A stretch of DNA of 57,207 nucleotides, from contig CABXKB010000008.1 in the NCBI GenBank assembly GCA_902512755.1, positions 1 to 57,207 of the forward strand, in the 5' to 3' direction. Source of the stretch: an uncultured Bacteroidota bacterium (GTDB lineage Bacteria > Bacteroidota > Bacteroidia > Flavobacteriales > Flavobacteriaceae). Each line of letters starts with the position of its first letter. The first letter of the stretch is position 1. The notes beneath the pieces were generated by a model. That model did not search any database, was not told the origin of the DNA, and saw only the letters and a list, made by a program, of their open reading frames with translations. The translations under genes and the position numbers were made by a program. This document shows, piece after piece, positions 345 to 10,498 of this stretch.

Positions 345-399
345 AACTTATGTTATACATTTTATACAAATGTAATTATTCTCACTCATCATATTTTTT

Positions 400-454
400 G
401 GCTATATACCATTATATGCACTCTAGTCTCAAAAGAAAAGTGGATTTAATTTTA
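400..454 (-). repeat. Left copy of a 55-bp inverted repeat framing the array
   Basis: Positions 431-454 are a perfect 24-base reverse complement of 10436-10459 (core AAATTAAATCCACTTTTC). The match continues without gaps for another 31 bases at lower identity and closes with GGCTATATA at 400-408 against TATATAGCC at 10482-10490. This copy lies just 3' of the EEP gene, as the right copy lies just 3' of the repeat-domain protein gene. It could be the end of a mobile unit or a second kind of gene-associated repeat. Confidence 0.75.
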
Positions 455-471
455 GGGACGGGGGTCTAATT

Positions 472-1332: not shown

Positions 1333-1409
1333 TGGTGGTCCCACCTGGGCTCGAACCAGGGACCAACTGATTATGAGTCAGCTACTCTAACCAACTGAGC
1401 TATAGGACC
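1333..1409 (-). tRNA. tRNA with CAT anticodon (elongator Met or Ile2)
   Basis: On the reverse strand the 77 bases fold as a standard tRNA. The acceptor stem is GGTCCTA with TGGGACC, the D-arm contains AGCTCAGTTGGTTAGAG, the anticodon stem-loop is CTGA-CTCATAA-TCAG with anticodon CAT, the T-arm contains GGTTCGAGCC, and CCA is encoded. CAT serves both elongator methionine tRNA and the lysidine-modified Ile2 tRNA. The GGTCC start and the CTCATAA loop are compatible with either, and sequence reading alone does not settle it. The gene sits at the edge of the cassette region. Confidence 0.93.
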
Positions 1410-1802: not shown

Positions 1803-1923
1803 CATCATAATAAGCTATAAAAAGGGGCATAACCTCTTCATTAAGTTCAGAAAGAAAAATACGGAGTAGAGATATTGTAGAGTTTTCTATATTAGCACCT
1901 TAATTAATCATAAATCAATTAAA
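1803..1923 (+). repeat. Array repeat A (core plus leader)
   Basis: First copy of the array repeat. The core contains CATTAAGTTCAG, then CGGAGTAGAGATATTGTAGA, and the shared leader ends TAAATCAATTAAA directly before the ATG at 1924. The 5' part differs from other copies by an extra AT-rich stretch (1809-1823) between ATCATA and GGCATA. Confidence 0.85.
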
Positions 1924-2439
1924 ATGAAAAGCAAACATTTTTTTCTAGTAACAACAGTGTTTTCACTTTTTTTAACTAGCTGTAATATAAGTCAAAATAC
2001 TACTAAACTAATTGAGGAAAATCAAGTAGGAATAATAAAAGGAGATGATTTTAGGTCTAAAGCGATGATAAAGTTTACAGACGCTTATGTTAAAAACGAC
2101 TTGAATAGTATGTCTGATTTATTCACCCCTGATGCAAATATAATGGTGAATGATTCAAATTTAACGTTCCCCGAAATGGCAGCGGGGTTTTCAAGTGGAC
2201 ATAATTACTTTGAAAATATCCGCCACGAGGAAAGAGATGCTTTTACTATGCATTATAGAGAAGGGGATATCGCTGGAAATATTTTTACTCATTATTGGTA
2301 TACATGGAAGGCAACCAGCAAGAAAACTGGAGAAGAACTTTCTATTAGAGGCTATGCCTGGATGAAGTGGAGCGGGGATAAAGTTGAAGCAATGTATAAT
2401 GCTTTTGACCCTACTTTATACAATGCTTCAATAGAATAG
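1924..2439 (+). CDS. NTF2/SnoaL-like lipoprotein
   Basis: This is a 171-residue lipoprotein precursor with a lipobox ending at Cys20 (LTSC). Residues about 45-165 look like an NTF2/SnoaL-type cone fold: KAMIKFTDAYVKNDLNSM, then DLFTPDANI, and late YAWMKWSGDKVEAMYNAFD. Such folds bind small ligands or act as isomerases or lyases. No catalytic residue can be assigned, so function is open. It is the first module of the array, reading off the leader of repeat A. A decayed terminator-like sequence at 2445-2476 and repeat B follow it. Confidence 0.75.
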   Translation: MKSKHFFLVTTVFSLFLTSCNISQNTTKLIEENQVGIIKGDDFRSKAMIKFTDAYVKNDLNSMSDLFTPDANIMVNDSNLTFPEMAAGFSSGHNYFENIRHEERDAFTMHYREGDIAGNIFTHYWYTWKATSKKTGEELSIRGYAWMKWSGDKVEAMYNAFDPTLYNASIE

Positions 2440-2490
2440 CATTTCAAGTTAATACCCCCTGCCAAGTGGAATGGGTTTTTCATATAGCCT

Positions 2491-2589
2491 AAATCATCGA
2501 AAAATAATCTTCATCAAGTTCAAGAAGAAAAACACGGAGTAGAGATAGAGTTTTATATATTAATAGCTTATTAATCATAAATCAATTAA
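2491..2589 (+). repeat. Array repeat B (core plus leader)
   Basis: Begins AAATCATCG and contains GTTCAAGAAGAAAAACACGG and GTAGAGAT, with ATTGT deleted before the leader. The leader ends ATCATAAATCAATTAA at the ATG of the next gene. The bases just before it (ATATAGCCTAAA, 2483-2494) also occur at the outer edge of the right inverted repeat near 10483. Confidence 0.9.
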
Positions 2590-3528
2590 ATGAAATATTT
2601 CATTCTAATAATTTTATTTTCTTCATTTTCAATAGCCCAAACAAATGATAAGGATTTGGAGGCTTTTAGAAAAGTAGAAAAAGATGTTGAAAATAATCTT
2701 ACTGAAGAGGTCGTAAAGATCAATGATACTTTTTTTATGATCAAACCTATAGGCGGTGTAGCTGGAAATATAGGAGTTTTTATTTCTGATAAAGGGTTGG
2801 TTTTAGTTGATGATCAATGGGAAATTATTGAGGATTTAATTTTAGAAACCATTAAATCAATAAGTAAAAAAGAGGTAAGTTTTATAATAAACACTCATTT
2901 TCATTACGATCACGTAGATGGAAATAAAGCTTTTGGGAAAAAAGGAATACCGATTGTTTCTCACGAAAATGTTAGGAAAAGACTCAAAAGGAAAACAAAG
3001 CTTTATGGTCATCCCCAGCACAATTACAATATGGTCCAAGATAAATACCCAGATTACGCATTGCCCTCAACTGTCTACAATTCAACTATGAAAATTTATA
3101 TTGATGATGAAGAAATACAGCTTTCAAATTTTGGCCCCGGTCATACGGATGGCGACACAATAGTCTTCTTTAAAAAAAACAATGTGATACACGCTGGGGA
3201 TTCATTTGTAACATATGGCTACCCTTTTGTTGATTTAAATGACGGAGGTAGCTTTAAGGGATTCATTAATATCTTAAGTCAAATTATTGCTATTTCTAAT
3301 GGTCAAACAAAAATAATTCCTGGACACGGACCTGTTTGTGATATTAACGATGTCATAACCCTAAAAAATATTCTTCAAGAGCATTATGAAATTACCGAAA
3401 AAGGATTTACAGAAGGTTTGTCTGTAGAACAAATAATGGCTGAAATCAAATCAGAATTAAATGGCCCAGGAAATATAACTAAAGAGGATTTTATTAAAAA
3501 TATTATTTATGATTTAAAAATAAACTAA
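2590..3528 (+). CDS. Secreted metallo-beta-lactamase-fold hydrolase
   Basis: The 312-residue protein has a short signal peptide (MKYFILIILFSSFSIAQ). The metal-binding motif HFHYDHVDGN lies near residue 103, with FGPGHTDGDT near 185 (third metal His), HAGDSF near 206 and IIPGHGP near 250. This is the complete ligand set of the MBL superfamily, so a zinc-dependent periplasmic hydrolase is likely. The Gly-rich IGGVAGNIGVF start of the domain resembles the quinoprotein-relay/class B-like secreted group, but no substrate can be named. It is a single-gene module between repeats B and C. Confidence 0.85.
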   Translation: MKYFILIILFSSFSIAQTNDKDLEAFRKVEKDVENNLTEEVVKINDTFFMIKPIGGVAGNIGVFISDKGLVLVDDQWEIIEDLILETIKSISKKEVSFIINTHFHYDHVDGNKAFGKKGIPIVSHENVRKRLKRKTKLYGHPQHNYNMVQDKYPDYALPSTVYNSTMKIYIDDEEIQLSNFGPGHTDGDTIVFFKKNNVIHAGDSFVTYGYPFVDLNDGGSFKGFINILSQIIAISNGQTKIIPGHGPVCDINDVITLKNILQEHYEITEKGFTEGLSVEQIMAEIKSELNGPGNITKEDFIKNIIYDLKIN

Positions 3529-3630
3529 ATCATAGTCATATTCTCTTCATTAAGTTCAGGAAGAAAAACGCATGGTAGAGATATTGTAGATTTTTTATAT
3601 TAGCAGCTTATTAATCATAAATCAATTAAA
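3527..3630 (+). repeat. Array repeat C (core plus leader)
   Basis: Starts at AAATCATAG, overlapping the stop codon of the preceding gene by two bases. Here the palindrome is easiest to see. Arm 3527-3546 pairs with 3577-3593 in blocks of 5, 2, 2, 3 and 4 base pairs, 16 in all. Unpaired bases A, GT and T lie on the first arm and one on the second, with a 30-base loop. The leader runs to the ATG at 3631. Confidence 0.9.
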
Positions 3631-4404
3631 ATGAAAAAAATAATTCTTTGCTTTCTTACTCTTACTATAGTGAATTTTATAACTGCACAACAAGTTGCTG
3701 TAGCAGACTTTATTCATCTTGAAGAAGGAGTAGATTCTGATTACAATACTTTAGAAAAAATCTGGAGGCCATTCCATAATAGTGAGATAAAAGCTGGCAA
3801 AAAAATGTTTTGGGCTGTCTGGAAAATAGATAATGGACCCGAAATGGAGAAAGCCCCCGACTATGTTGTATTTAATATTTTTAAAGATGAGAATCAACAA
3901 AAAAGTTATATGAAAAATTGGGATGGAGATACGTCAAGAAAAAAGATTGAATCTCTGAATAGAGGAAAATATTCAAAATCTACGATTAAGAATATTATGA
4001 ATAAAAAAATAAAAAATGAAGTTCGTAGCTATACCATAAAAATTCTACACCAAACAGTTATGACAGGGGGAGAAGCTAAAATTGGAGATAAAATTTCAAT
4101 GGGTGCGATGAGAGAAAAAAGTGATGACTATGAGGAGTTTGAAATGAATGTTTTTTTACCAATGTGGGAAAAGCAATTATTAAACGGTAAAATTAGTCAA
4201 TGGTCTTTCGCAAAGGTGATTGACAAAAATGAAGCTGCAAATGACGTTACACATATGACTTTTATTTTTAGAAACAAAGCTAATCCTAGAGATGTTATGT
4301 TTATGCCTAACAATGAATGGTTAAGTAATAAAATTGTAGAGCAAGGATTGACGACAAGAGAATTTTGGCCCTCAGAGGCTACTCTAGTTTATATGTCAAA
4401 CTAG
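3631..4404 (+). CDS. Secreted protein of unknown function, probable dimeric alpha/beta-barrel type
   Basis: This is a 257-residue exported protein with signal peptide MKKIILCFLTLTIVNFITAQ. No family is firmly recognised. Two segments (about 25-100 and 140-230) show alternating strands and amphipathic helices, with WAVWKID and MWEKQLLNGKISQWSFAKV. The latter aligns by eye with FWRFSNRITEVYKKH in the module at 8201, so the two are probably paralogues, perhaps of an ABM/EthD-like ferredoxin-type fold. A strong terminator (4447-4473) follows and then repeat D. Confidence 0.65.
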   Translation: MKKIILCFLTLTIVNFITAQQVAVADFIHLEEGVDSDYNTLEKIWRPFHNSEIKAGKKMFWAVWKIDNGPEMEKAPDYVVFNIFKDENQQKSYMKNWDGDTSRKKIESLNRGKYSKSTIKNIMNKKIKNEVRSYTIKILHQTVMTGGEAKIGDKISMGAMREKSDDYEEFEMNVFLPMWEKQLLNGKISQWSFAKVIDKNEAANDVTHMTFIFRNKANPRDVMFMPNNEWLSNKIVEQGLTTREFWPSEATLVYMSN

Positions 4405-4446
4405 AAAATTAGCATCCTTCCCAGACGTGTGAATTTTAATATTATT

Positions 4447-4473
4447 ACCCCTAGTCTATTCTAGGGGTTTTTT
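4447..4473 (+). terminator. Rho-independent terminator
   Basis: ACCCCTAG pairs perfectly with CTAGGGGT around a 6-base loop and is followed by T's. It closes the 3631-4404 module, and repeat D begins immediately after the T-run, giving the order gene, terminator, repeat. Confidence 0.9.
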
Positions 4474-4474
4474 A

Positions 4475-4537
4475 TATCATAGGCATATTCTCTTCATTAT
4501 GTTCAGTAAGAAAAACAATTAGTAGAGATATTGTAGG
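4475..4537 (+). repeat. Array repeat D (core only)
   Basis: The core runs from ATCATAGGCATATTCTCT to AGTAGAGATATTGTAG. After that the sequence differs from the shared leader, so this module has its own 30-base leader. This helps define the right boundary of the repeat core. Confidence 0.88.
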
Positions 4538-4567
4538 TAAATTTAAATATCTAAAAAAACCAACACT

Positions 4568-5422
4568 ATGAAAAAGTTATTTACACTAATAGCAATATTG
4601 TTTATTACTACACCTGCATATGCTCAAGAAAAAATATTCTTAGACTATCAAAAATGGGAATTAAAATCATTCAAAGAAAACAGGGTTCTTATTTCAGAGC
4701 AAGAAGGCGTATGGCTAGATAATATATCCGAACCTGAAATGGACTTATATAAAGCTCAAGGAAATTCTATAACAGATAAAACTATGATAATTTGCCCTGG
4801 AGGAGGTCTTTTTTTTAGTGCTTATGAAAAAGAAGGGGTTAAACTAGCAAAAAAATTAGCTTTAAATGGAATTACTGCAATTGTCTTAAAGTATAGAACA
4901 TATCCAAGAAAAGGTTCTGTAATAGAATGGGCTGGAACATTATCGGATAAACCTCAAGTGGAAATAGATAGTGCCAAAATTATACTCCCATTTTCTACAA
5001 AAGATGCTTTAACAGCAATAGAAGTAATGAGAGAAAAAGCAGCGAAATACAATATTAATCCTAATAAAATTGGATTGATGGGATTCTCTGCAGGAGGAGC
5101 AGTAACTATGGAAGCTGCATATACTTCAACCTCAAAAAATCAACCAAATTTTATTGCACCGATTTATCCTTGGATGGATATTGTTGAAGGACAAAAGGTT
5201 CCTAGCAATAACCCTCCTGCATTTATTGCCTGTGCAAATAATGACGAATTTAGAGAGATTCCTACTTCAAGTGTTCAAATTTACCAGGACTGGATTCAAG
5301 CGGAAGCAAAAGTAGAGCTTCATATGTTTAGTGATGGGGGTCACGGATTTGGGATGAATAAAATAAATTCTCCAGTTGATAGATGGTCTCAATTATTGGT
5401 TGATTGGATATTAGCTCTTTAA
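4568..5422 (+). CDS. Secreted alpha/beta hydrolase (esterase/lipase type)
   Basis: The 284-residue protein has signal peptide MKKLFTLIAILFITTPAYAQ. Features of the alpha/beta hydrolase fold are the oxyanion loop ICPGGGL near residue 77, nucleophile elbow GFSAGG near residue 176, a probable acid in NNDEF near 218 and the catalytic His in GGHGFG near 260. The arrangement resembles acetyl-esterase or xylan-esterase type enzymes acting in the periplasm, and the substrate is not readable. It is a single-gene module with its own leader between repeats D and E. Confidence 0.85.
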   Translation: MKKLFTLIAILFITTPAYAQEKIFLDYQKWELKSFKENRVLISEQEGVWLDNISEPEMDLYKAQGNSITDKTMIICPGGGLFFSAYEKEGVKLAKKLALNGITAIVLKYRTYPRKGSVIEWAGTLSDKPQVEIDSAKIILPFSTKDALTAIEVMREKAAKYNINPNKIGLMGFSAGGAVTMEAAYTSTSKNQPNFIAPIYPWMDIVEGQKVPSNNPPAFIACANNDEFREIPTSSVQIYQDWIQAEAKVELHMFSDGGHGFGMNKINSPVDRWSQLLVDWILAL

Positions 5423-5434
5423 CTTAATACATTC

Positions 5435-5500
5435 AAATCATAGGCATATCCTCTTATATAATTTCAGGAAGAAAAACACGGAGTAGAGATATTGTAGATT
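5435..5500 (+). repeat. Array repeat E (core only, before a reverse-strand gene)
   Basis: The core runs from AAATCATAGGCATATCCTCT to GTAGATT. The final bases overlap the stop codon (TTA on the forward strand, 5499-5501) of the reverse-oriented Bax-inhibitor-like gene. The repeat keeps its orientation although the next gene is inverted, which argues against a simple promoter or untranslated-region element. Confidence 0.9.
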
Positions 5501-6236
5501 ATTTTCTTGAATTAAGTTTTGCAAGTAATCTTAATATTTCAAGATATAACCAGATTAGGGTTACTAATAAACCAAATGCTCCATACCATTCCATAAACTT
5601 AGGGGCTCCTTTTTCAGCACCCTCTTCTATAAAATCAAAATCTAAAACTAGATTTAGAGAAGCAATTATTACTACAACAATACTAAAGCCAATACTAAAA
5701 GGAGAAGAGTTGTTGATACTCATAACTCCAAGTTCTGAACCAAAAAAACCCATTATAAAGTTTATTAAGTAAACTATTGTAATACCTCCTGTAGCTGCAA
5801 ATATTCCAAGTTTGAAATTTTCAGTTGCTTTTATATAACCAGATCTATAAGCGATCAATAACGAAACTAATATCCCTACTGTTAAGAGTATAGAGTTTGT
5901 TACTATACCATCATATAAAGAATTATACATATAAGATATTCCACCCAACATAGCACCTTCTAATACGGAATAAATAGGAACAGTAATCGGAGCCCATTCT
6001 TTTTTAAAAACAGTGATAATAGCTAATATGAATCCCCCTATTCCATATCCAATCAATAAAACGGGACTAATTGCATCAAAAGTAAAATAACCTGTTCCTA
6101 CAAGCAGCAAGAGACTTATTGCTGTTTTATTAACAGTGCCTTCAATAGTCATCTTATTATCAGATAAAATTGAATTAGTAAAAGTTTTATTTGAAAGAAC
6201 AGGATTGCCTGATCTTAAGGATAGATGTCTATTCAT
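5499..6236 (-). CDS. Bax inhibitor-1/YccA-like membrane protein
   Basis: The 245-residue protein has a short N-terminal tail (RSGNPVLSNKTF) and seven predicted membrane helices between about 40 and 240. The tail, the KEWAPITVPIYSVLEGAMLGGIS segment and the C-terminal LDFDFIEEGAEKGAPKFMEWYGAFGLLVTLIWLYLE pattern are those of the Bax1-I/YccA family. Relatives act as membrane calcium leak channels or protease modulators, and the role here is unknown. It is the only reverse-strand gene among the array modules. It has its own upstream region with a TATATTTG box. Confidence 0.88.
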   Translation of the reverse strand: MNRHLSLRSGNPVLSNKTFTNSILSDNKMTIEGTVNKTAISLLLLVGTGYFTFDAISPVLLIGYGIGGFILAIITVFKKEWAPITVPIYSVLEGAMLGGISYMYNSLYDGIVTNSILLTVGILVSLLIAYRSGYIKATENFKLGIFAATGGITIVYLINFIMGFFGSELGVMSINNSSPFSIGFSIVVVIIASLNLVLDFDFIEEGAEKGAPKFMEWYGAFGLLVTLIWLYLEILRLLAKLNSRK

Positions 6237-6260
6237 AATATTTTTTTAGCAAAATCAAAG

Positions 6261-6268
6261 CAAATATA
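6261..6268 (-). promoter_or_regulatory. Possible -7 box (TATATTTG) of the reverse-strand module
   Basis: On the reverse strand TATATTTG fits the Bacteroidota TAnnTTTG -7 element, about 25 bases before the start of the Bax-inhibitor-like gene. No convincing -33 TTG was found at the usual spacing. Confidence 0.4.
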
Positions 6269-6323
6269 TTATGTTAAGATAAATAAGACCTTATCTTATA
6301 CCAAGATTTTAAAGCGATCTCTT

Positions 6324-6423
6324 AAATCATCGGTATATCCTTTTCTTAAGTTCAGGAAGAAAAACACGGAGTAGAGATATTAAAGAGTTTTTATATATTC
6401 GTTGTAATCATAAATCAAACATA
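6324..6423 (+). repeat. Array repeat F (core plus diverged leader)
   Basis: The core from AAATCATCGGTATATCC through TTCAGGAAGAAAAACACGG to GTAGAGATATTA is well conserved. The leader keeps TAATCATAAATCAA before the ATG at 6424 but differs in the middle. Confidence 0.88.
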
Positions 6424-6618
6424 ATGAGAGATTTTTTTAAAAAGTACGGCGCAACTTTAACAATAATTTTTGCAGTGATATTGTTTATTTCTTCTGAATT
6501 ATTAAAAGGGATTCCACAATATTTAAATTATACGAATCTTATTATCTTTTTTATAATCTGCATAACTCCTGTAGGATTAAGTATATACTTCAATAACACA
6601 AAAAAAGATAATTCATAG
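6424..6618 (+). CDS. Small two-helix membrane protein
   Basis: A 64-residue protein with hydrophobic segments at about 11-29 and 37-55 and a charged tail (NNTKKDNS). No family is recognised. It reads from the leader of repeat F. Its last codon (TCA, Ser) and its TAG stop come from the first bases of repeat G (ATTCATAGG), so its C-terminus was probably set by the junction with the repeat. Its single-gene module setting supports it as a real gene. Confidence 0.6.
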   Translation: MRDFFKKYGATLTIIFAVILFISSELLKGIPQYLNYTNLIIFFIICITPVGLSIYFNNTKKDNS

Positions 6619-6708
6619 GCATATCCTCTTAATTAAGTTCAGCAAGAAAAACACTGAGTAGATATATTATAGAGTTTTTTATATTAGCAGCTTATTAATC
6701 ATAAATCA
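6610..6708 (+). repeat. Array repeat G (core plus leader)
   Basis: Begins AATTCATAGGCATATCCTCT, overlapping the end of the preceding gene, and carries the full shared leader (TTTTTTATATTAGCAGC, then TTAATCATAAATCA) up to the ATG at 6709. Confidence 0.9.
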
Positions 6709-7308
6709 ATGAAAAATTTATTTATAATGTTTTTATGCATTATAGTGTTTTCATGCTTCAAAACAGACATAGTGCAATTTGAGACCGCAAATACAGACCC
6801 TGCAACATTCGCAAGTGGCCAACAACTTCCTGTAGCTACTCGCAGTTATACAAATTTTTGTAATCCCAATGGATGGGGGAGAAAGGGTTGTGAGTTTTTA
6901 GCAAAATATGATGGTACATTTTGGGCAGATACTGAAAATTATTATAGCGACTTTTCAGATTTAAAATTTATAAACGACGTATATTTTGTATCCTTCTTTA
7001 ATATTGATAATGATGTTTCATATTGTAAAGGATGGAGAACAGGTGAAAACACTTACGATGGAATAAAATGGAATATAAAAATCACAAAAGATGGGTGGGA
7101 TGTTTTGTGGTTTGATTATGATTATTATGGGTTTAGCGATGAAATTGAATATACTATAACTTATAAATATGAAGTAATTGACAGCTTACTTCATTTTACA
7201 AGTACCGATAATCAAACATTTATTTTTAGTCCATCTGATAAAAATTATTCAAAAGATTATGTTGACACAGGCGAAATAATTGAATTACAAGGGTGTATGT
7301 TTTACTAA
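6709..7308 (+). CDS. Lipoprotein of unknown function
   Basis: This 199-residue lipoprotein precursor has its lipobox at VFSC (Cys16). The mature part is rich in Tyr, Trp, Phe and Asp (NYYSDFSDLKF, WFDYDYYGFSDEIEY) and carries several Cys (NFCNPNG, KGCEF, SYCKGW, LQGC), which could form disulfides in the periplasm or outside. No known domain is recognised; a beta-rich fold is likely. It reads from the shared leader of repeat G and is followed by a half copy of the repeat. Confidence 0.65.
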   Translation: MKNLFIMFLCIIVFSCFKTDIVQFETANTDPATFASGQQLPVATRSYTNFCNPNGWGRKGCEFLAKYDGTFWADTENYYSDFSDLKFINDVYFVSFFNIDNDVSYCKGWRTGENTYDGIKWNIKITKDGWDVLWFDYDYYGFSDEIEYTITYKYEVIDSLLHFTSTDNQTFIFSPSDKNYSKDYVDTGEIIELQGCMFY

Positions 7309-7315
7309 TTAGGAA

Positions 7316-7355
7316 AAATTAAACCACAGTCATATCTTCTTTATTAAGTTCAGGC
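7316..7355 (+). repeat. Array repeat H (truncated 5' half)
   Basis: Only the 5' half is present (CAGTCATATCTTCTTTATTAAG, then TTCAGG). After TTCAGG the sequence becomes unrelated, so the 3' palindrome arm and leader are lost. Confidence 0.7.
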
Positions 7356-7651
7356 ACTTCTACCTTTGCCATTATTGACCTAACCTAAGATTACCTTGAA
7401 GTTGTTTTTTTTGGGTTTTTTTAAGTATTGGAGAAAGAGTGGAATATTGAGAAAAGGCTTCACATAAAAATTCAATTTTTGACGTTTTTGACTCATTTTT
7501 GACTCATTTTGAGAGTTTTTGAGTCATTTTTTGTCATTTTTGACTCATTTTCGTCATTTTTCAAGTTTTTCTAAATTTGCTTTTTAGACCTTGTTTTAAC
7601 CTCTTTTTGATATTTTGTATATATTGATATTATTAACTATATATCAATTTT
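7356..7651 (+). other. Non-coding stretch with a cluster of TGACTCA-type palindromes
   Basis: No coding frame is supported in this gap. Positions 7476-7565 are built from short units of the form TTTTTGACTCA. The near-palindrome TGACTCA or its complement TGAGTCA occurs four times, together with partial copies TGACG and GTCATTTTT, at a spacing of roughly 10-25 bases. The sequence then continues AT-rich to the ATG at 7652. It could be an operator cluster, a slipped simple repeat or structured RNA. Confidence 0.55.
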
Positions 7652-8158
7652 ATGAAGCTTATTTACCTTTCTTTCGTGCTTACATTATTTATCTCTTGTG
7701 AACAATCGAAAAAGATTTCTGAAAAAGAAGTAATGCAAACATTTAATGAATTCTTTTATCTATTAGACAACGATGTCGATAAAATTAGAGACTATTTATC
7801 AGAAGATTTTATGATTTTCGAAGTAAGTAGAAAATGGAATACAGATGAATTTATTGAATTTGTCGAAGGATTTGGAAAATTTGAATCTAAAAGAGATTTT
7901 AGAAACATTAAAATAGATACAGATTTTAATTCTGCTCATATTAGTCTTGAACATTCTGGTGAATTTGAACTTGAAAAATCAACACCTGATGGAGCAACAG
8001 TTTTATCATATGAATGGCTTGAAAGTGCATATCTTATAAAAGAAAAAGGTAAGTTAAAATTCAAGTTTTACTTTTCAGAACAAATAAATGATTCAAATCA
8101 TCTGCACACCCTATTAATTAAGCTCAGGAATAAAAACACAGAGTTAAGATGTTTTTAG
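7652..8158 (+). CDS. NTF2-like lipoprotein, C-terminus extended into a repeat
   Basis: This 168-residue lipoprotein precursor has its lipobox at FISC (Cys16). The mature part (EVMQTFNEFFYLLDNDVDKIRDYLSEDFMIFE, then KLKFKFYFSEQIN) has the length and pattern of an NTF2/SnoaL-like domain, ending near residue 147. The last 20 or so residues (from about SNHLHTLL to LRCF) are translated from repeat I, which begins at 8095. The original stop codon was probably lost when the repeat joined. Function unknown. It lacks a repeat-derived leader, because repeat H upstream is truncated. Confidence 0.7.
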   Translation: MKLIYLSFVLTLFISCEQSKKISEKEVMQTFNEFFYLLDNDVDKIRDYLSEDFMIFEVSRKWNTDEFIEFVEGFGKFESKRDFRNIKIDTDFNSAHISLEHSGEFELEKSTPDGATVLSYEWLESAYLIKEKGKLKFKFYFSEQINDSNHLHTLLIKLRNKNTELRCF

Positions 8159-8200
8159 AGTTTATTATATTAGCAGCTTATTAATCATAAATCAATTAAA
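8095..8200 (+). repeat. Array repeat I (core plus leader, overlapping the previous gene)
   Basis: Starts AAATCATCTGCA inside the preceding reading frame. It keeps ATTAAGCTCAGGAA, then AAAAACACAGAGT, and a full leader TATATTAGCAGCTTATTAATC to the ATG at 8201. The core is more diverged than C-G while the leader is nearly identical, which suggests that the leader is under selection. Confidence 0.88.
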
Positions 8201-8959
8201 ATGAAAAAACTATTATTTATTGTTTTTATTATATTTTCAATTTCATCTATGATTGCACAAAGTAATCCTGATGGGGAATTTTGGGTAACGGGAAGAGTTG
8301 AGATAAAAAATAGCATGACAGGTGAGTTTGAAAAAGCGGCAGCTTTAAAAACCAAGAAGTATAATAATTCTCAAGAAACAGCAATGACTACTTATAAAGT
8401 AATGGATGGCCCAGATCAAGGGAAATACGAAAGAATTCAAGGATACAAAACCTTAGATTGGTTTAATTCTAATATGATGTCGGGAACTGGATATAAATAT
8501 TGGCAAAATAATGTTTCCCAATATGTTCAAAATTATGAAGGAAGAAAAATTTGGATAAGAATTGAGAATTTGAGTCTAAACTGGGGCCCTGAAGTAAAGC
8601 CAAAAAAACATATTCACCGGCAAATTAGAATTATTAAACCCGGAAGGCTTGGAGATTTTTGGCGTTTTTCTAATCGAATAACAGAGGTTTATAAAAAACA
8701 CAATCATACTGGAGTTAGGGCTGTTTTTAAAATAACATCTGGAGATAATGAAAATATGATGGTTATTGTTAATGCATTTGATGATTTTAAGGATCAAGGA
8801 AAATTTCCTAATACAGAAAAATCATTAATGCAATTATACAATGAAATGTATAATGAATCTTGGGATAAGGATTTGGAGATCTACAATGATGCTATTGAAA
8901 TGTGGGGAAGACAAAAAGAAAGATTATCCTTAGTTCCAGAACTATCAACAGAATTATAA
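8201..8959 (+). CDS. Secreted protein of unknown function, probable paralogue of the 3631 module
   Basis: A 252-residue exported protein with signal peptide MKKLLFIVFIIFSISSMIAQ. It has paired strand-helix segments including GDFWRFSNRITEVYKKH and MMVIVNAFDDFKD. These resemble the second half of the 3631-4404 product in order and spacing, and the two proteins are of nearly the same length. A ferredoxin-like dimeric barrel is possible, but no family is proven. It reads from the shared leader and ends in a strong terminator at 8978-9002. Confidence 0.65.
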   Translation: MKKLLFIVFIIFSISSMIAQSNPDGEFWVTGRVEIKNSMTGEFEKAAALKTKKYNNSQETAMTTYKVMDGPDQGKYERIQGYKTLDWFNSNMMSGTGYKYWQNNVSQYVQNYEGRKIWIRIENLSLNWGPEVKPKKHIHRQIRIIKPGRLGDFWRFSNRITEVYKKHNHTGVRAVFKITSGDNENMMVIVNAFDDFKDQGKFPNTEKSLMQLYNEMYNESWDKDLEIYNDAIEMWGRQKERLSLVPELSTEL

Positions 8960-8977
8960 TTAATATCCGAACGAACT

Positions 8978-9002
8978 AACCCTCCCAAGTGGAGGGTTTT
9001 TT
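8978..9002 (+). terminator. Rho-independent terminator
   Basis: AACCCTCC pairs with GGAGGGTT around CAAGT, followed by a T-run that leads straight into repeat J. The central CCAAGTGGA also occurs in the decayed hairpin after the first module (about 2461-2469). Confidence 0.9.
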
Positions 9003-9066
9003 AATCATAGGCGTGGCCTATTTATTAAGTTAGTTATGAAAAACACAGTGTTAAAATATTGCAGAG
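9003..9066 (+). repeat. Array repeat J (diverged core)
   Basis: Begins AATCATAGGCGTGG and keeps TTATTAAGTTAG, then AAAAACACAGTGTTAAAATATTGCAGAG. The shared leader is absent; instead TTTATCTTTAAGAT precedes the ATG at 9085. Confidence 0.8.
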
Positions 9067-9084
9067 TTTTTTTATCTTTAAGAT

Positions 9085-9303
9085 ATGGAGTATTATAAAA
9101 AAAGAAAAAAAGAAATTGTGGAAGCTATATTATCAACCATAAGTAATATTAGGGATAACGAATACAACAAAATAGAAAATGCTTATAAGATATATGAGCA
9201 AAAAGGAGCAAAACACGTTACTAACATTGGTCAAAACACTTTCAACGAAGTAATTATTGACGCCTTAGATGAAGTAAAAACAACATTTGAAAAGAGCTTA
9301 TAG
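9085..9303 (+). CDS. Small cytoplasmic protein (72 aa), unknown
   Basis: A 72-residue, highly charged and helix-prone protein (MEYYKKRKKEIVEAILSTI, IENAYKIYEQKGAKHV) without a signal peptide. No family is recognised. It is one of few soluble cytoplasmic products in the array. It sits alone between repeats J and K, with a TATCTTTA box about 20 bases before its ATG. Confidence 0.6.
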   Translation: MEYYKKRKKEIVEAILSTISNIRDNEYNKIENAYKIYEQKGAKHVTNIGQNTFNEVIIDALDEVKTTFEKSL

Positions 9304-9315
9304 TGTAATATAAAA

Positions 9316-9380
9316 CTAAACCAAATGCACCTCCCCTTCATTAAGGTTATTAAGAAAATACGGAGTTAAGATATTCATTT
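9316..9380 (+). repeat. Array repeat K (diverged core)
   Basis: Recognisable by CCTTCATTAAGG, then TTAAGAAAATACGGAGTTAAGATATT. The 5' arm (AAACCAAATGCACCTCC) is diverged and there is no shared leader. It marks the boundary before the lipoprotein remnant and the last module. Confidence 0.7.
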
Positions 9381-9484: not shown

Positions 9485-9525
9485 ATATTTATTATATTTG
9501 ATTATAAAATTTTAATAGCTTGTAT

Positions 9526-10389
9526 ATGAAACTTCGTTTTTTTACGTCCCTCTTATTATCAATGCTAACTACTTCATTGGTTAATTGCCAGATAATTAAT
9601 GTTAAGATTAATGACTTTGTTGATCAACATAATGGTTTTGAAGAAAATGAAGAAGGGGAGATTAATCCAATTAACCTTAAAGAAATCAATAAGAGAATTC
9701 GTTTTTTTATTGAAGAAAAGCATCCTGATATTGTTGAATTTACTCGTAACATTATATGGGACTCTTATGGGACTTTTTTAAGTCCTTCTGACAGGCACCA
9801 CTCTCATACGTTTATTGTTCAAGTTAAAGTTACTGATGTTGATCGTCTAAAATACCTAGAAGTTCACTACGATCCTTATAAAAAGAAAGTTTCTGGTGAT
9901 TTTGAATGGATACCTGAAGATGAGGAGTTTTATTTAGTTAACGAGAAGGTAGAAGACCAAAAGCTGCTCCCGAATCTTAAAAATCTTGAAATTTCAAATC
10001 AAGAACAAATTCCGAACTTAAAAGACTTTATTGATGAGCATCAGGGCTTTATTGATGAAATAAAAAGACTGGATTTGAATGAAAACGAAATAGTTCCAAT
10101 AAACGTAGCTAAAATTAACAAGTTAATTCGTGCTTTCAACAAGGCAAATTATTCTAATGTTGAATATACTAGAAATATTATTTGGGATTCTTACACTACC
10201 TTTTTAAGTCCTTTTGATAAATACAACTTTCACGTATTTATTGCACAGGTTAAAGTTGAAGGGATCAATCGTTTAAAATATCTGGAAGTTTTTTACAATC
10301 CGGTATCTGAAAAAATTACTGCAGATTTCAAATGGATTGAGGAGGATGAAGAGTTTTTCAGAGTATTTGAAACTGATGAAGAATCTTAA
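9526..10389 (+). CDS. Exported protein with two tandem homologous domains
   Basis: The start is taken at the ATG 9526 (a TTG two codons earlier would add nothing), giving 287 residues with signal MKLRFFTSLLLSMLTTSLVNC. The mature part is a tandem duplication of about 115 residues. INDFVDQHNGF, TRNIIWDSYGTFLSP, DRLKYLEVHYDP and EDEEFYLV in the first half match FIDEHQGF, TRNIIWDSYTTFLSP, NRLKYLEVFYNP and EDEEFFRV in the second. Conserved WDSY, FLSP and acidic clusters may form a binding surface. No family is recognised. It is the last module of the array. Confidence 0.7.
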   Translation: MKLRFFTSLLLSMLTTSLVNCQIINVKINDFVDQHNGFEENEEGEINPINLKEINKRIRFFIEEKHPDIVEFTRNIIWDSYGTFLSPSDRHHSHTFIVQVKVTDVDRLKYLEVHYDPYKKKVSGDFEWIPEDEEFYLVNEKVEDQKLLPNLKNLEISNQEQIPNLKDFIDEHQGFIDEIKRLDLNENEIVPINVAKINKLIRAFNKANYSNVEYTRNIIWDSYTTFLSPFDKYNFHVFIAQVKVEGINRLKYLEVFYNPVSEKITADFKWIEEDEEFFRVFETDEES

Positions 10390-10435
10390 TCAGTTCAAGA
10401 AGTCCAATTTAAAACTCTCAAACTAGCCTCATCAT

Positions 10436-10490
10436 TAAAATTAAATCCACTTTTCTTTTAATGTTATAGCTTATATAACAATATATAGCC
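10436..10490 (+). repeat. Right copy of the 55-bp inverted repeat
   Basis: Perfect 24-base inverted match to 431-454, then 22 diverged bases and TATATAGCC (10482-10490), at exactly the offset found on the left. It lies 46 bases after the stop codon of the duplicated-domain gene. Confidence 0.75.
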
Positions 10491-10498
10491 TAAAACAT

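What the first reader, a model, noticed from the sequence alone, without database searches (positions are those of the whole stretch)
1803..9380. Single-gene cassettes separated by a conserved repeat of about 62 bp
Eleven copies or part copies of one repeat (A-K) lie between unrelated single genes in 7.6 kb. The constant core runs from AATCATAGGCATAT through ATTAAGTTCAGGAAGAAAAA to GTAGAGATATTGTAGA. Several modules read gene, own terminator, repeat. The products differ (lipoproteins, MBL-fold, alpha/beta hydrolase, membrane proteins) and there is no operon logic. This is how a gene-cassette array looks, yet no integrase or transposase is in the window and the repeat matches no element I know. 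It could be a new cassette-capture system or an integron-derived cluster lacking its integrase.
Basis: partly seen in the sequence, partly recalled or inferred. Interest (0 to 1): 0.92.

Follow-up and report, generated by a model that had tools for sequence, protein, structure and literature searches.

The report
Gene cassettes at an integrase's tail
Marine flavobacteria carry rows of swappable single genes separated by a short repeat that is the tail end of a DNA-cutting-and-joining enzyme's own gene, which looks like an integron-style gene-capture system separate from integrons, though no experiment has yet shown it working.

Summary
In detail: ten full copies and one half copy of a composite repeat separate mostly single genes at 1824-9376, beyond chance. 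The first 33 nt, read on the other strand, are the last 11 codons of a tyrosine-recombinase gene; the second half is the 3' end of a small island gene. The window's incomplete MAG (54.7%) shows no such recombinase, but relatives do, and there the gene's 3' end is the first repeat of an array. In array copies the triplet after the core is an integrase-frame stop in 142 of 183 (0.5-8.7% at 12 other offsets). Cassettes up to 99.6% identical occur in different genomes with unrelated flanks. In 16 of 44 integrase loci the integrase's own 3' end is repeated nearby in the same direction; a tRNA or fragment lies beside the integrase 5' end in 32 of 39. It is not an integron: not IntI, no attC-like fold. 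Best reading: a tRNA-anchored, integron-like cassette platform whose attachment site is the recombinase's own 3' coding end. Catalysis and crossover point are inferred.

The parts
1824..1882 (+). repeat A (core = antisense 3' end of integrase gene, plus R1 leader = 3' end of a small island ORF)
   Evidence: 64.2 bits; composite reading
1924..2439 (+). cassette gene 1, 171-aa SnoaL-like lipoprotein-like ORF; homologue 78.6% in G031 (L073)
   Evidence: (SnoaL_2 8e-4, below cut-off)
2491..2551 (+). repeat B
2590..3528 (+). cassette gene 2, metallo-beta-lactamase-fold protein; cassette core B..core C is 96.4% identical to G030:C29 (L082:4846-5913)
3527..3591 (+). repeat C
3631..4404 (+). cassette gene 3, 257 aa, no Pfam match; distant homologues (41% and less) in other arrays
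4475..4537 (+). repeat D, preceded by a terminator-like hairpin (by eye)
   Evidence: sequence
4568..5422 (+). cassette gene 4, alpha/beta hydrolase; homologue (78.9%) in an array of G003 (L076)
5435..5499 (+). repeat E
5499..6236 (-). cassette gene 5, Bax-inhibitor-1-like, antisense to the repeats; homologue (86.9%) also antisense in the integrase-bearing array of G022 (L099)
6324..6387 (+). repeat F
6424..6618 (+). cassette gene 6, 64-aa membrane-like ORF
6610..6674 (+). repeat G
6709..7308 (+). cassette gene 7, 199 aa; homologues next to arrays of G018 and G028
7321..7353 (+). half repeat H: core only, continuing antisense into a few more integrase-like codons (EVPELNKEDMTVV*), possibly a junction to a lost integrase body
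7652..8158 (+). cassette gene 8, 168 aa; homologues in arrays of G028 and G015
8095..8156 (+). repeat I
8201..8959 (+). cassette gene 9, 252 aa, no Pfam match; only distant homologues (33% and less)
9003..9066 (+). repeat J
9085..9303 (+). cassette gene 10, 72 aa; homologue (91.7%) beside cores of G001 (L094)
9318..9376 (+). repeat K (end of array)
1333..1409 (-). intact tRNA-Met(cat) beside the array; arrays of the genus often lie beside tRNA genes, but its strand is opposite to that usual for such arrays

Best explanation
The array is the cassette part of a tRNA-anchored genomic island whose tyrosine recombinase uses the 3' end of its own coding sequence as the attachment site for single-gene cassettes. 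SHOWN: (1) the core repeat is the last 11 codons plus stop of this recombinase gene; (2) in several relatives the recombinase gene is directly followed by arrays in which that 3' end is repeated in the same direction; (3) cassettes bounded by cores are shared between genomes with unrelated flanks; (4) most array-resident cores keep the recombinase reading frame and its stop; (5) the recombinase 5' end mostly abuts tRNA genes or truncated tRNA genes. INFERRED: the recombinase joins a circular cassette (leader-gene-core) to the core at its own 3' end, so each capture swaps the last codons of the recombinase for similar codons carried by the cassette and the enzyme stays whole; the same or a related enzyme integrates the island at tRNA anticodon arms. 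The window's array has lost, or its incomplete MAG lacks, the recombinase.
For: Core = integrase 3' end in the five intact integrases of the genus (G016, G022, G018, G032, G060); PF00589 in the two scanned. Same codon among identical residues: 0.93 in the last 8 codons, 0.76 and 0.63 in the two 25-codon blocks before, 0.26-0.51 elsewhere. Array cores: integrase-frame stop in 142 of 183; 0.5-8.7% at 12 other offsets. 122 of 156 inter-core intervals hold exactly one ORF; 162 ORFs sense, 23 antisense. Exchange: 18 of 19 cassette pairs (body identity 75-99.6%, some pairs sharing a member) have unrelated 60-nt flanks on both sides; 78 of 210 ends of >=85% matches fall in cores against 2.5% at random; a duplicate cassette in one G001 array at 98.6%. 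G001 shares the right flank and has an array with none of the window's array genes; eight further genomes show no convincing core in the 0.9-17.7 kb seen upstream of aconitase. 16 of 44 integrase loci (13 of 39 outside the six I could match to the genus, five of which are in the 44) have same-direction copies of their own 3' end: 35 same-direction (27 downstream, 8 upstream of the integrase) against 5 opposite; control segment 0, shuffles 0. tRNA match upstream of the integrase 32 of 39, downstream 0 of 37, random windows 14 of 733.
Against: No clean empty-site/occupied-site pair was found; the one indel between close genomes (G018/G028) shares only ACTAATTTGTATATT at its ends. In shared cassettes the cores differ as much as random cores (0.79 downstream, 0.775 random), so the crossover point is not resolved. 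132 of 210 match ends lie outside cores. 28 of 182 array cores have stops inside the 11 codons. 28 of 44 integrase loci have no same-direction copy nearby (many are cut by contig ends), 8 of the 35 copies lie on the other side of the integrase, and three of four copies in L178 are reversed. Of 28 copies outside the genus only 17 match their own integrase best or equally. Similarity of near-identical integrases ends at the stop codon in most pairs, but it also ends 1.1-1.2 kb upstream, near the tRNA, so the gene may simply sit in different places; and L154/L155 and L181/L189 stay similar about 90-136 nt beyond the stop. One of the two peptide patterns used was the DMP tail itself, so its frequency in that set is partly chosen. 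The own MAG has no such integrase. The window tRNA has the wrong strand, and in 12 of 28 loci the array is on the 5' side of the tRNA. No activity is shown.
Confidence: 0.67

Rival explanations
1. The recombinase only integrates islands at tRNA genes. Cassettes are shuffled by ordinary RecA-dependent homologous recombination between the short repeats and shared leader/promoter sequences.
For: Cores of shared cassettes diverge at background level; the G018/G028 indel has only the shared leader ACTAATTTGTATATT at its ends; 132 of 210 match ends lie outside cores.
Against: Cores are 33 nt and about 78% alike, short and diverged for RecA (recalled general knowledge); does not explain why the repeat is exactly the recombinase 3' end, why array copies keep its stop codon, nor why other integrases have copies of their own, different 3' end nearby.
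Confidence: 0.2
2. Accretion and decay: successive tRNA islands, each with its own integrase, inserted in tandem; deletions left only integrase 3' ends as scars.
For: Some downstream copies carry longer integrase remnants (L192 ORF +395..+601; the 14 nt before the copies in L179 and L199 match the integrase); integrases with stops in G011 and G007; the integrase gene as a whole differs in place between genomes; a few tRNA fragments within arrays.
Against: In the genus most copies are joined, right after the core, to recurrent leader families; cassettes are not separated by tRNA fragments; unit-sized cassettes are shared between unrelated contexts.
Confidence: 0.09
3. The repeat is a regulatory element (leader, promoter or terminator) that spread between genes and has no part in mobility.
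For: The part after the core often leads into TATATTAG/TGTATATT and a start codon.
Against: The core sits at the end of the preceding gene, is read as integrase codons on the other strand with a kept stop, and bounds exchanged segments.
Confidence: 0.02
4. A classical integron or CALIN with unusual attC sites.
For: Single-gene cassettes, array, tyrosine recombinase at one end.
Against: Recombinases score 17-28 bits to the integron integrase model, cut-off 265; no consensus fold in the window copies.
Confidence: 0.02

Closest known systems
Integrons (IntI with attI and attC cassette arrays)
   Same: tyrosine recombinase at one end of an array of mostly single-gene cassettes, each with a recombination site at its 3' end; arrays without integrase exist
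   Different: recombinase not IntI; site is the recombinase's own 3' coding end instead of a separate attI near its start (attI placement recalled); no attC-like fold; cassettes bring their own leaders; islands sit at tRNA genes
Additive flexible genomic islands with tRNA-fragment repeats in streamlined bacteria (Ca. Actinomarinales PMC7771536; Ca. Methylopumilus PMC10872708; passages seen)
   Same: small gene cassettes added one after another beside tRNA genes, marked by short direct repeats; cassette transfer between genera reported for Actinomarinales
   Different: there the repeat is a piece of the tRNA gene; here it is the 3' end of the integrase gene, and tRNA fragments mark mainly the integrase side
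Suicidal archaeal integrases such as SSV1 and pT26-2 (PMC8371274; passages seen)
   Same: attachment site lies inside the integrase gene
   Different: integration there splits the integrase gene; here only the last codons would be exchanged and the frame stays whole; no cassette arrays in the passages seen
pdif/Xer modules of Acinetobacter (PMC7399989; search listing and start of abstract only)
   Same: genes flanked by short tyrosine-recombinase sites
   Different: host XerCD act there on Xer sites; here a dedicated recombinase whose own gene end is the site
Tycheposons (original work recalled; described in PMC10872708 passages)
   Same: tRNA-linked islands with a tyrosine recombinase in aquatic bacteria
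   Different: no integrase-tail repeats or single-gene arrays in the passages I saw

Membership tests
Integron | IntI-family integrase | tested here: not met
   four integrases scanned: TIGR02249 17.1-28.3 bits, cut-off 265
Integron | attC sites with conserved bottom-strand fold | tested here: not met
   ten window copies: 0 consensus pairs; R/L box motifs not separately scanned
Integron | array of mostly single-gene cassettes | tested here: met
   122 of 156 inter-core intervals with exactly one ORF of 55 aa or more
Integron | cassettes exchanged between arrays | tested here: met
   18 of 19 pairs with unrelated flanks
Integron | integrase-catalysed excision and insertion of circular cassettes | not testable with these tools
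   needs bench work or reads
tRNA-integrated genomic island | integrase next to a tRNA gene or a tRNA fragment | tested here: met
   32 of 39 upstream of the integrase, 0 of 37 downstream, 14 of 733 random windows; four of the 32 (L153-L155, L197) match ARAGORN calls that may be chimeric
tRNA-integrated genomic island | intact copy of the same tRNA at the other end of the island | tested here: inconclusive
   same-type tRNA downstream of the integrase in 10 of 32 loci, 8 on the strand opposite to the integrase; 16 of the 22 without one have less than 5.2 kb of DNA there, six have 8.7-10 kb and still none
Additive fGI with tRNA-fragment repeats | cassettes separated by repeats of the tRNA gene | tested here: not met
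   repeats are integrase 3' ends; tRNA fragments only at few places
Suicidal integrase elements | integrase gene split by integration | tested here: not met
   integrase frames next to arrays are whole in L116 and L099 and in many loci; broken ones exist too
pdif/Xer modules | dif-like site recombined by XerC/XerD | tested here: inconclusive
   the array-linked recombinases score far below XerC/XerD cut-offs; dif motif not scanned, so host Xer action on the cores is not excluded

The most novel reading that the evidence does not exclude
An independent, integron-like gene-capture platform spread over Flavobacteriales, in which recombination site and recombinase coding sequence are the same DNA: each captured cassette must supply a working C-terminus for the enzyme that captured it, so site and enzyme tail are renewed together at every capture.
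Probability: 0.57. Interest if true: 0.95.

Novelty: new variant of a known kind. Interest (0 to 1): 0.86.

Why it matters
Integrons are the textbook natural gene-capture device. A system with the same output built from another recombinase and a site hidden inside that recombinase's gene would be a separate solution, found here in flavobacteria known mostly from single-cell genomes and MAGs, and would explain how they trade single genes. Finders that look for IntI and attC would be expected to miss it. The design makes a testable prediction about site-enzyme co-evolution.

Tried and rejected
Rejected: an RNA or attC-like fold in the window copies (0 consensus pairs); IntI membership; any Rfam family for the repeat (at gathering scores only the tRNA matched). 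Considered that the core imitates the tRNA anticodon arm, which would unify both insertion sites: for the genus core p = 0.025 against tRNA-Asn alone, 0.076 over the four arms tried; 0 of 44 integrase ends below 0.05, so not kept. Tried to fix the crossover point from cassette pairs: not resolved. G018/G028 indel as an empty site: ambiguous. A search for the chromosomal genes beside the G018 integrase island in five relatives gave no usable locus. Phage, plasmid and viral-contig searches for the integrase gave two phage records of one phage at 26%, one plasmid at 24%, and no viral contig. Not explained: the role of the small GRIAGxPNK protein gene whose 3' ends form two of the three recurrent cassette starts. 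That this is not in print rests only on searches, in a library of open-licence papers without preprints; hits were judged by listing except for four papers.

Full report
Observation. The window holds ten full copies and one half copy of the repeat at 1824-9376, all on the + strand; the weakest full copy has 49.4 bits, the half copy H 19.9, the best other place in the window 8.7. A 28-nt pattern gives 7 matches against 0 in 100 shuffles. The window is contig C8 of a MAG of 1.22 Mb, 54.7% complete; further copies lie on its contigs C1, C6, C37 and C3.

What the repeat is. In many relatives only the first half (model positions 1-34) is found; what follows comes in several families. Read on the opposite strand, the first half is the protein end PELNEEDMPMI followed by a stop, and in G016 and G022 it continues without break into a 347- and a 360-aa frame of the Phage_integrase family. 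Five intact genes of this kind were found in the genus; 8 of 38 genus genomes have a match at E<=1e-20, the window's own MAG none. The second half of the window's repeat reads forward as EEKHGVEIL and a stop, the end of a 100-aa protein in G001.

Distribution. The 66-nt model finds the repeat (E<=1e-4) in 28 of 36 same-genus relatives and the own MAG, and in 0 of 23 genomes of other genera of the order. The integrase reaches further: one scan of named genomes, capped at 80 loci of 81, gave mostly uncultured Bacteroidetes and Flavobacteriales MAGs and single-cell genomes, one cultured species with the DMP tail (Flavobacterium ammonificans, L188), and more distant Pedobacter and Mucilaginibacter proteins without it; one of its two search patterns was the tail motif itself. 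In an even sample of the order 20 of 395 genomes and 8 of 109 genera have a match at E<=1e-30. Viral contigs gave none, phage and plasmid records only weak hits.

The integrase end and the arrays. In G060 (L116) the integrase is followed by seven further cores in the same direction, in G022 (L099) by five. Outside the genus, L158, L163, L164, L179, L187, L192 and L199 each show an integrase, then cargo, then a same-direction copy of that integrase's own 3' end. Over 44 loci with an integrase frame of 300 aa or more and the DMP tail (five of them genomes of the genus), copies within 8 of 36 mismatches number 35 same-direction (27 downstream, 8 upstream of the integrase) and 5 opposite; 16 loci have a same-direction copy, 13 of them outside the genus; a control segment 150 nt upstream and shuffled sites give none. 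28 loci have none; many contigs end close by. Of 28 copies outside the genus, in 14 loci, 17 are matched best or equally by their own integrase. In L178 three of four copies are reversed. 'Outside the genus' means not among the six loci that I could match to genus genomes.

Coding constraint. Among five integrases about 50% identical, residues that agree use the same codon in 0.93 of cases in the last 8 codons, 0.76 and 0.63 in the two 25-codon blocks before, 0.26-0.51 elsewhere. In 183 array cores from 20 genomes, not fused to an integrase body, the triplet after the core is a stop in the integrase frame in 142 (TAA 87, TAG 38, TGA 17); at twelve other offsets the fraction is 0.5-8.7%. Single-codon changes are synonymous in 140 of 528 (0.27; 0.16-0.22 expected), and second codon positions vary least, but 28 of 182 cores contain an internal stop. 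This fits sites that pass through the integrase end from time to time, not a constraint acting on every copy.

Cassette exchange. Of 156 inter-core intervals 122 hold exactly one ORF of at least 55 aa; 162 ORFs run with the core and 23 against; median spacing 844 nt. The window's MBL cassette is 96.4% identical over 1070 nt, core B to the end of core C, to one in G030; a G001 cassette is 99.4% identical over 628 nt to one in G030; one G001 array holds the same cassette twice at 98.6%. Of 19 cassette pairs with body identity 75% or more, 18 have unrelated 60-nt flanks on both sides; some pairs share a member. For matches of 85% or more and 300-2500 nt, 78 of 210 ends fall within a core, against 2.5% at random; 132 do not. 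Against a simple picture, cores of shared cassettes differ as much as random cores (0.79 downstream against 0.775), so the crossover is not located. The G060 cassette next to the integrase recurs in arrays of G025 (88%) and G028 (76%), with similarity ending at the core.

Same locus, other genes. G001:C4 shares the window's right flank (PorP-like protein 88%, aconitase) and has an array there, but none of the window's array genes (blastp E<=1e-5). The best relatives of those genes lie in loci of G031, G030, G028, G003, G022, G015, G007 and G001; the 64-aa gene 6 has none. All 13 genus genomes searched for this flank matched (G022 only weakly); of these, eight stretches upstream of aconitase were fetched (G004, G030, G007, G011, G028: about 17 kb; G018 6.6, G003 2.6, G016 0.9 kb), with no core at E<0.1 (two weak hits at E 0.19 and 0.94) and no window array gene at E<=1e-10. 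Gene order further left differs, so this is presence/absence near a shared gene, not strict synteny.

Ends of the integrase unit. Ten pairs of integrases with 91.8-97.4% identical bodies were compared, and six at 80-90%. In L179/L181, L179/L189, L165/L173, L163/L167 and L171/L182 similarity ends at or just before or after the stop; in L153/L154, L153/L155 and L185/L186 the last codons already differ more than the body; L154/L155 and L181/L189 stay similar for about 90-136 nt further. After the stop, 80-nt identity averages 0.50 over 14 pairs with data, near unrelated DNA (0.45); where stops differ in place these segments are out of register. On the other side similarity ends about 1.1-1.2 kb upstream, near the tRNA, so the shared unit is roughly the integrase gene alone; this fits a mobile integrase unit and does not by itself prove swapping at the 3' end.

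tRNA anchoring. Upstream of the integrase lies a tRNA or a tRNA fragment in 32 of 39 loci, downstream in 0 of 37, in random windows 14 of 733 (a wider count was 54 of 61; four of the 32 match possibly chimeric ARAGORN calls). In 21 of the 32 the tRNA is on the strand opposite to the integrase; of the 19 of these that reach the tRNA 3' end, 13 begin at position 22-30. Four others hold a 5' part ending at 43-50. Both limits enclose the anticodon arm. A tRNA of the same kind follows downstream in 10 of 32. In the genus 28 of 52 loci with cores have an intact tRNA within 3.5 kb; strands agree in 22 and disagree in 6, the window among the 6, and two of the 6 are integrase loci with a chimeric tRNA call.

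Reading. The simplest account is a tRNA-targeted island whose recombinase also uses its own 3' coding end as cassette site. Shown: identity of repeat and gene end, architecture, exchange, frame constraint, tRNA anchoring. Inferred: that this enzyme catalyses cassette insertion, that cassettes circulate as circles, and where strands are cut. Known relatives in function are integrons and additive tRNA islands; it fails two defining features of integrons. Papers: passages of PMC8371274, PMC10872708, PMC7771536 and PMC8138268 were seen; others only as search listings. No paper on this system appeared in searches.

Noticed in passing
L090:8244-8546, L089:3559-3774, L078:2292-2519, L170, L172, L180, L228: A small protein family (GRIAGxPNK...) recurs in the islands; its gene's 3' end, often followed by TAAGTTCAGG, forms two of the three common cassette starts, including the second half of the window's repeat. 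Role unknown.
   Followed up: partly
window 395-463 and 10427-10495: A 69-nt inverted repeat pair, 77% complementary, brackets the tRNA-Met and the whole array.
   Followed up: no
window 7472-7570: Runs of TTTTTGACTCATTTT beside half copy H; similar TTTTTGACTC runs follow the integrases of L181 and L189.
   Followed up: no
L188 (Flavobacterium ammonificans GENT11, complete genome): A cultured species carries the integrase (44% identity) beside a tRNA-Ala fragment with an intact tRNA-Ala about 3.3 kb on, without core copies in the stretch held; a possible laboratory host.
   Followed up: partly
L069 and L103 (G018/G028): Tandem family of related 190-200-aa lipoprotein-like genes next to an array, with copy-number differences between close genomes; window gene 6709-7308 belongs to it.
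   Followed up: no
window 9729-9875 and 10155-10301: Internal duplication (72%) inside the ORF 9520-10389 just after the array.
   Followed up: no
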